In this document: piece by piece, positions 23,895 to 24,027 of the stretch
Position numbering within the stretch: position 1 is the first letter of the stretch
Layout: each line of letters starts with the position of its first letter
Origin: Moraxellaceae bacterium
Lineage (GTDB): Bacteria; Pseudomonadota; Gammaproteobacteria; Pseudomonadales; Moraxellaceae
Length of the DNA: 64,000 nucleotides
Reading direction: 5' to 3'
Assembly: GCA_004173455.1 (NCBI GenBank)
Contig: SECL01000008.1
Span: 35,409 to 99,408, forward strand
Program-made: the position numbers and the translations under genes
The notes under the pieces: model-generated
What the model saw: the letters and a program-made list of their open reading frames with translations, nothing else
What the model was told of the DNA's origin: nothing
Databases searched by the model: none

Positions 23895-23923
23895 TTGCCA
23901 GTGATTAAACATTGATCTATAAT
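23895..23923 (+). promoter_or_regulatory. Sigma70-type promoter for candidate sRNA
   Basis: TTGCCA (23895-23900), 17-bp spacer, TATAAT (23918-23923). Confidence 0.65.
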
Positions 23924-23929
23924 TAAGAC

Positions 23930-24027
23930 ATACCACGTGAACTGGAAGTAGAACGTTTCGGACGTTCAGCGGACGCAGACCAATGGTCGGGAGTCAGGCG
24001 CTACTATGAGTTCATGTGGTTTTTTTT
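23930..24027 (+). ncRNA. Candidate structured small RNA with three-way junction and intrinsic terminator
   Basis: P1 23932-23943/24009-24020 (12 bp, one G.U), 3x3 internal loop, P2 23947-23949/24003-24005, P3 hairpin 23951-23967, P4 23968-23971/23999-24002 enclosing 23972-23974/23993-23995 and 23978-23981/23985-23988; followed by T8. Confidence 0.65.

What the first reader, a model, noticed from the sequence alone, without database searches (positions are those of the whole stretch)
23895..24027. Candidate ~98-nt structured sRNA on the strand opposite the phage head operon, ending over the 3' end of the portal-PBECR gene
Seen directly: TTGCCA-N17-TATAAT, then from about 23930 an RNA closed by a 12-bp stem (ACCACGUGAACU / AGUUCAUGUGGU, one G.U), a 3x3 internal loop, a 3-bp stem and a three-way junction. 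One branch is GAACGU-UUCGG-ACGUUC. The other is AGCG/CGCU enclosing GAC/GUC and GACC-AAU-GGUC. The RNA ends in 8 U. All flanking genes are on the other strand and this ~120-bp gap has no ORF. The last ~16 nt are antisense to the end of the portal gene, which carries an RNase-like domain. Inference: a lysogen- or phage-expressed regulatory, structural or decoy RNA. I do not recognise a known RNA family. Function is unknown; options include antisense control of the portal/PBECR mRNA, a packaging-associated RNA, or a trans-acting sRNA.
Basis: partly seen in the sequence, partly recalled or inferred. Interest (0 to 1): 0.82.

Follow-up and report, generated by a model that had tools for sequence, protein, structure and literature searches.

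The report
Small-RNA gene hidden in phage head operon
On the strand opposite its head genes, this prophage carries a small structured-RNA gene with its own promoter and terminator; related phages keep different RNA genes of the same build at that spot, so it looks like an exchangeable RNA accessory slot whose job is still unknown.

Summary
A near-consensus sigma-70 promoter (TTGCCA-N17-TATAAT), a 12-bp closing stem starting at the predicted +1 and a T-run bracket an ~96-nt RNA (23932-24027, +) that folds far better than shuffles (z -4.3) and matches no Rfam family. Its core recurs in a Neisseria-type prophage at the same portal/MuF junction (L111) and on a chromosome of the same family beside a type I-F CRISPR array (G018). 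The junction is a slot for antisense RNA genes. Prophages whose portal carries a C-terminal PBECR or LPD3 domain hold one to five such genes there, from at least six sequence families, with the promoter at a fixed distance from the closing stem (10/13 versus 5/463 background units). Phages with short portals lack the gap. Cis-antisense control of the portal is not supported: the overlap is 17 nt here and absent in relatives. Best reading: a stable, trans-acting accessory ('moron') RNA gene, active independently of the late operon. Its target is unknown; an antidote for the portal RNase domain or an RNA-based counter-defence remain open. No transcript was measured.

The parts
23895..23923 (+). 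sigma-70 type promoter, TTGCCA-17-TATAAT
   Evidence: 11/12 matches; same spacing to the closing stem in homologous units
23932..24027 (+). predicted small RNA, about 96 nt, ending in a U-run
   Evidence: folding z -4.3; homologues L111 and G018
23932..23943 (+). 5' arm of closing stem P1, beginning at the predicted +1
   Evidence: different sequence but still paired in L111 and G018
24009..24020 (+). 3' arm of closing stem P1, doubling as terminator stem
24021..24027 (+). T-run after the closing stem (intrinsic terminator tail)
23947..23951 (+). 5' arm of P2 (AGUAG)
   Evidence: 3 of its 5 pairs show compensatory changes
24001..24005 (+). 3' arm of P2 (CUACU)
23953..23965 (+). hairpin P3, ACGU-UUCGG-ACGU; loop and 3' side strongly conserved in sequence
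23972..23995 (+). hairpin P4, GAC/GUC enclosing GACC/GGUC, with conserved GGGA
24012..26015 (-). portal protein with C-terminal PBECR3 RNase-like domain, convergent with the RNA gene
   Evidence: PF06381 and PF18812; model with weak similarity to BrnT/YoeB/RelE
23093..23890 (-). MuF head protein; in relatives with short portals it overlaps the portal gene
   Evidence: PF04233; gap table

Best explanation
A free-standing sigma-70-driven small-RNA gene lying in an RNA-gene slot between portal and MuF. Shown by sequence comparison: promoter, closing stem placed at the predicted +1, terminator, conserved three-way-junction core, and occupation of the same slot on the same strand by other RNA genes in related prophages. 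Inferred: the RNA is made in the lysogen and whenever the phage DNA is in the cell, independently of the late operon. It is long-lived because its 5' end is buried in the blunt closing stem. It acts in trans through its conserved core (UUYGGACGUUCRGC...CGYAGACC...GGGA), as a decoy or regulator in conflict with host defences or rival phages, in the manner of a 'moron' whose product is RNA. It travels as one exchangeable module with the portal's C-terminal effector-type domain. Estimated confidence: about 0.85 for the RNA gene, 0.7 for trans action, 0.35 for the conflict role.
For: Fold z -4.3 and 11/12 promoter. Homologue in L111 at the same junction and strand, nhmmer E 2.7e-6. Third member in G018, per-genome E 8.6e-9 among 350 family genomes. 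Three-sequence structure: 94% of cells paired, 5 pairs with compensatory change, 0/500 shuffles. G.U 19 versus A.C 2 over families A, D and E, so the antisense strand is the RNA strand. Promoter within 6-9 nt of the closing stem in 10/13 slot units versus 5/463 background, Fisher p 5.6e-15. Antisense promoter plus T-run next to 11/39 extended portals versus 0/125 short ones; several of the 11 are near-identical strains. Several RNA genes in one phage, five in L115. Signature stretches of families D and E occur nowhere else in IMG/VR.
Against: No transcript measured. Only three close family-A members, so covariation rests on few sequences; G018 breaks 3 pairs, folds poorly alone (z -1.1) and has no U-run. 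Nothing tested here ties the RNA to a target or phenotype. Lysogenic expression is inferred from promoter quality only.
Confidence: 0.6

Rival explanations
1. The RNA is the antidote of the portal's RNase-like C-terminal domain: a structured decoy or inhibitor that keeps PBECR/LPD3 activity off the producing cell, convergent in logic with type III toxin-antitoxin pairs.
For: RNA genes sit directly behind the stop codon of PBECR3, PBECR1 or LPD3 portals and no such signal lies behind 125 short portals. PBECR domains are predicted RNases fused to portals (PMC5512222). The PBECR3 model resembles BrnT/YoeB/RelE weakly.
Against: RNA family does not track the domain: the A core occurs with PBECR3 (window) and LPD3 (L111), and next to no portal in G018; families A to F all occur with LPD3. 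LPD3 gave no RNase-like match. Extended portals outside this clade lack an RNA.
Confidence: 0.18
2. No RNA function: a convergent promoter/terminator pair whose transcription or stable terminator insulates the head operon, the RNA being a by-product.
For: Position at the portal stop codon; terminator on the plus strand only.
Against: The inner core is conserved in sequence and by compensatory changes across two phages and a chromosome; arrays of several units in one gap; the core is conserved away from a portal in G018.
Confidence: 0.1
3. RNA-based anti-CRISPR or other CRISPR-linked RNA.
For: The G018 homologue lies about 100 bp beyond a type I-F array. The host of this prophage has a type I-F system. 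RNA anti-CRISPRs exist in phages (PMC10651486).
Against: The RNA is not a repeat mimic: longest shared stretch with the G018 I-F repeat is 5 nt, with the own-genome repeat 6 nt. No held spacer matches the prophage. No RNA at the own-genome cas1 loci.
Confidence: 0.06
4. Cis-antisense control of the portal-PBECR mRNA.
For: 16-17 nt overlap with the 3' end of the portal gene in the window.
Against: RNA ends 3-15 nt outside the portal ORF in L106, L108, L110, L113, L114 and L222; the overlap is terminator, not conserved core.
Confidence: 0.04
5. Packaging or prohead RNA, as in phi29.
For: Lies among head genes.
Against: Relatives with short portals lack it; others carry several unrelated RNAs; strong constitutive-type promoter.
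Confidence: 0.03

Closest known systems
Prophage-encoded trans-acting sRNAs (e.g. DicF of Qin, SprY; reviewed in PMC12197685)
   Same: Small RNA gene of a prophage with regulatory or interfering potential, independent of the lytic programme
   Different: No sequence relation found in Rfam; blunt-closed three-way-junction fold; member of an exchangeable RNA slot inside the head operon
Prophage antisense/superinfection-exclusion RNAs (sas RNA of P22, STnc6030 of BTP1; PMC12197685)
   Same: Encoded opposite phage structural or exclusion genes
   Different: Those act by long cis complementarity to their target gene; here the overlap is 17 nt and not conserved
RNA anti-CRISPRs (Racr; PMC10651486)
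   Same: Phage-encoded small RNA as a possible counter-defence molecule
   Different: No CRISPR-repeat mimicry
Type III toxin-antitoxin RNAs (ToxI type; from general knowledge)
   Same: Structured RNA gene next to an RNase-like protein domain
   Different: Convergent, no tandem 35-nt repeats, own promoter, RNA identity does not follow the protein domain
phi29 packaging RNA (from general knowledge)
   Same: Structured phage RNA among morphogenesis functions
   Different: Not conserved among close relatives; several unrelated RNAs per phage

Membership tests
Any Rfam 15 family | Covariance-model match at gathering score | tested here: not met
   for the window; 126, 127 for relatives
Independently transcribed prophage sRNA gene | Own promoter and terminator bracketing a non-coding structured RNA | tested here: met
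   (sequence level)
Independently transcribed prophage sRNA gene | Transcript detected | not testable with these tools
   no RNA data available
Independently transcribed prophage sRNA gene | Structure kept by compensatory change in homologues | tested here: met
   5 pairs, 0/500 shuffles, but only 3 sequences; families D and E:
Cis-antisense RNA of the portal gene | Conserved overlap with the target gene | tested here: not met
   relatives do not overlap
RNA anti-CRISPR (Racr) | Mimics a CRISPR repeat | tested here: not met
Type III toxin-antitoxin | Adjacent RNase toxin | tested here: inconclusive
   PBECR3 predicted RNase by family; structure match weak
Type III toxin-antitoxin | Antitoxin RNA made of short tandem repeats upstream of the toxin gene | tested here: not met
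   single non-repetitive unit, convergent with the portal gene
Packaging RNA (phi29 pRNA) | Required by, hence conserved in, the phage group | tested here: not met
tRNA/tmRNA-like | ARAGORN or Rfam tRNA match | tested here: not met
   for the window RNA; for relatives

The most novel reading that the evidence does not exclude
Tailed phages of Neisseriaceae and Moraxellaceae keep an exchangeable arsenal of unrelated structured RNAs, each a complete mini-gene, in a fixed slot behind a portal-borne effector domain, and use them as RNA weapons or shields: antidotes of the virion RNase or non-CRISPR-mimic counter-defence RNAs. The chromosomal member beside a CRISPR array would then be a recruited copy.
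Probability: 0.3. Interest if true: 0.85.

Novelty: new variant of a known kind. Interest (0 to 1): 0.62.

Why it matters
Accessory genes inserted in phage structural operons are normally proteins and are found by ORF callers; a slot that holds RNA genes is invisible to them. If the RNAs act in phage-host or phage-phage conflict, the slot gives a direct way to collect new RNA effectors from genome sequence alone, using the fixed anatomy: antisense promoter, stem at +1, U-run at the portal stop codon.

Tried and rejected
Nucleotide similarity to the phage collection: only chance matches. Single-sequence portal query for loci: none in viral or genome contigs. Model R1 was built with a structure shifted by one column and was discarded; R2 and R3 replace it. 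R2 hits in the family at E 0.002-0.05 were not inspected one by one and are treated as noise. R3 over 288 genomes of the order found only the window itself. Host sRNA near polA: no homologue at polA in 16 relatives. K-turn reading of GCAGACC/GGGA: possible but not better than the hairpin. Small peptides: only short frames in the window gap; the ATG in some F units is not kept. Spacer targeting of the prophage: none. A DNA-uptake-sequence search to obtain a Neisseria genome handle failed. CRISPR-repeat mimicry and tRNA mimicry: rejected.

Full report
Observation. The described elements are present at the stated places. TTGCCA (23895) and TATAAT (23918) are 17 nt apart, 11 of 12 consensus bases. 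The 12-bp stem 23932-23943/24009-24020 is followed by a T-run to 24027. The RNA folds at -37.7 kcal/mol, z -4.3, with no shuffle as good. The terminator exists on the plus strand only. Among all closing-stem plus T-run units of the 64-kb window, this is the only one with a promoter score of 8 or more placed directly upstream; none of 20 Markov windows gave such a combination at this stem strength. Rfam gives nothing. The neighbours are a MuF gene and a portal gene with a C-terminal PBECR3 domain, both on the minus strand.

Where it lies. The genome is a species whose family includes Acinetobacter: G862, same family, carries a portal 93% identical to the Acinetobacter-labelled P0013. In most relatives with ordinary short portals, MuF overlaps the portal gene and there is no gap. 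In relatives whose portal carries a C-terminal PBECR1, PBECR3 or LPD3 domain, a gap of about 100-770 nt is present. It is filled by antisense units that have a promoter, a stem starting at the predicted +1 and a U-run ending near the portal stop codon. L115 has five such stem units in tandem. In L106, L111 and L114 an F unit runs into a D unit that has no promoter of its own. L222 (G862, LPD3 portal) has an unrelated unit GGAGAUUUAG...CUAAAUCUCC-U7. L103/L105 (PBECR1 portals) carry a different RNA with a separate terminator. L023 also shows an antisense promoter and terminator.

Statistics of the slot. Thirteen distinct antisense units detected in the slot were compared with 463 units detected elsewhere in the same loci: 10 versus 5 have a promoter of 8/12 or better at 4-10 nt from the stem (Fisher p 5.6e-15). 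The three exceptions are the D units that follow an F unit. An antisense promoter plus T-run is found behind 11 of 39 extended portals and 0 of 125 short ones. Close strains inflate the first number, and extended portals outside this clade lack it.

Homologues of this RNA. nhmmer found the core in L111, an IMG/VR contig carrying Neisseria uptake sequences, at the same junction and strand. A covariance model from these two found a third in G018, a different genus of the same family, at E 8.6e-9 per genome among 350 genomes. There the RNA has its own promoter (TTGCCA-17-TAAAAT) and a closing stem, lies about 100 bp past the end of a type I-F CRISPR array and upstream of polA, and is not conserved at polA of relatives. 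A more distant match is one L115 unit (E 1.4e-4). 94% of cells are paired, 5 of 17 pairs change on both sides, and no shuffle matches this. Families D and E show 2 and 1 compensatory pairs with no broken cell. Across A, D and E there are 19 G.U against 2 A.C cells, which identifies the antisense strand as the RNA. With three sequences this is strong suggestion, not R-scape-grade proof, and G018 breaks three pairs.

Function. Cis-antisense action is not supported, because the overlap with the portal is confined to the terminator and absent in relatives. A packaging RNA is not supported, because presence and identity vary among close relatives. Repeat mimicry of CRISPR was tested against the G018 and own-genome I-F repeats and not met, although the own genome has a I-F system. 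The link to RNase-like portal domains suggests an antidote, but RNA family and protein domain do not go together. What remains best supported is an autonomous, stable, trans-acting accessory RNA gene in a slot for such genes. The conflict role is inferred from its rapid turnover, modular exchange, own promoter and company (PBECR domains as predicted injected RNases, PMC5512222; CRISPR array in G018).

Novelty. Phage and prophage sRNAs are a known kind (PMC12197685). A fixed slot inside the head operon holding interchangeable, unrelated RNA genes was not found in the literature searched. That search covers open-licence papers only.

Noticed in passing
L233:1497-1566 / L244:11474-11543 (G018): Chromosomal member of the same RNA family between a large type I-F CRISPR array and polA, with its own promoter; the only non-phage member found.
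   Followed up: partly
L115:7010-7785: Five antisense stem units in tandem behind one LPD3 portal, including two copies of family D, plus a small hydrophobic ORF.
   Followed up: partly
L111/L114, gap upstream of MuF: Small predicted membrane protein (about 48 aa, MEIITCIAAAVKAAGEKVMLELVRNAWIKFALGFVLLCYGISLIKWW) on the portal strand inside the slot.
   Followed up: no
L023:7120-7260, minus strand: Possible larger antisense RNA (~140 nt) with separate terminator behind a portal whose C-terminal domain matches no Pfam family.
   Followed up: partly
L103:6880-7030, minus strand: PBECR1-portal phages carry a different antisense RNA with a separate hairpin terminator; only a sub-threshold Rfam match (NsiR1).
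   Followed up: partly
G000:C4:1-10550 (L279) and G000:C66: Type I-F CRISPR-Cas system in the window's own genome (Cas1f, Cas3f, Cas7f, Cas8f), and a second Cas1 on another contig.
   Followed up: partly
window 23079-23094: Good minus-strand terminator directly after MuF, so portal/MuF may be transcriptionally separated from the downstream head genes.
   Followed up: no
L191 (BK070131.1): Prophage labelled Helicobacter pametensis carries family E and a portal annotated as two adjacent ORFs.
   Followed up: no
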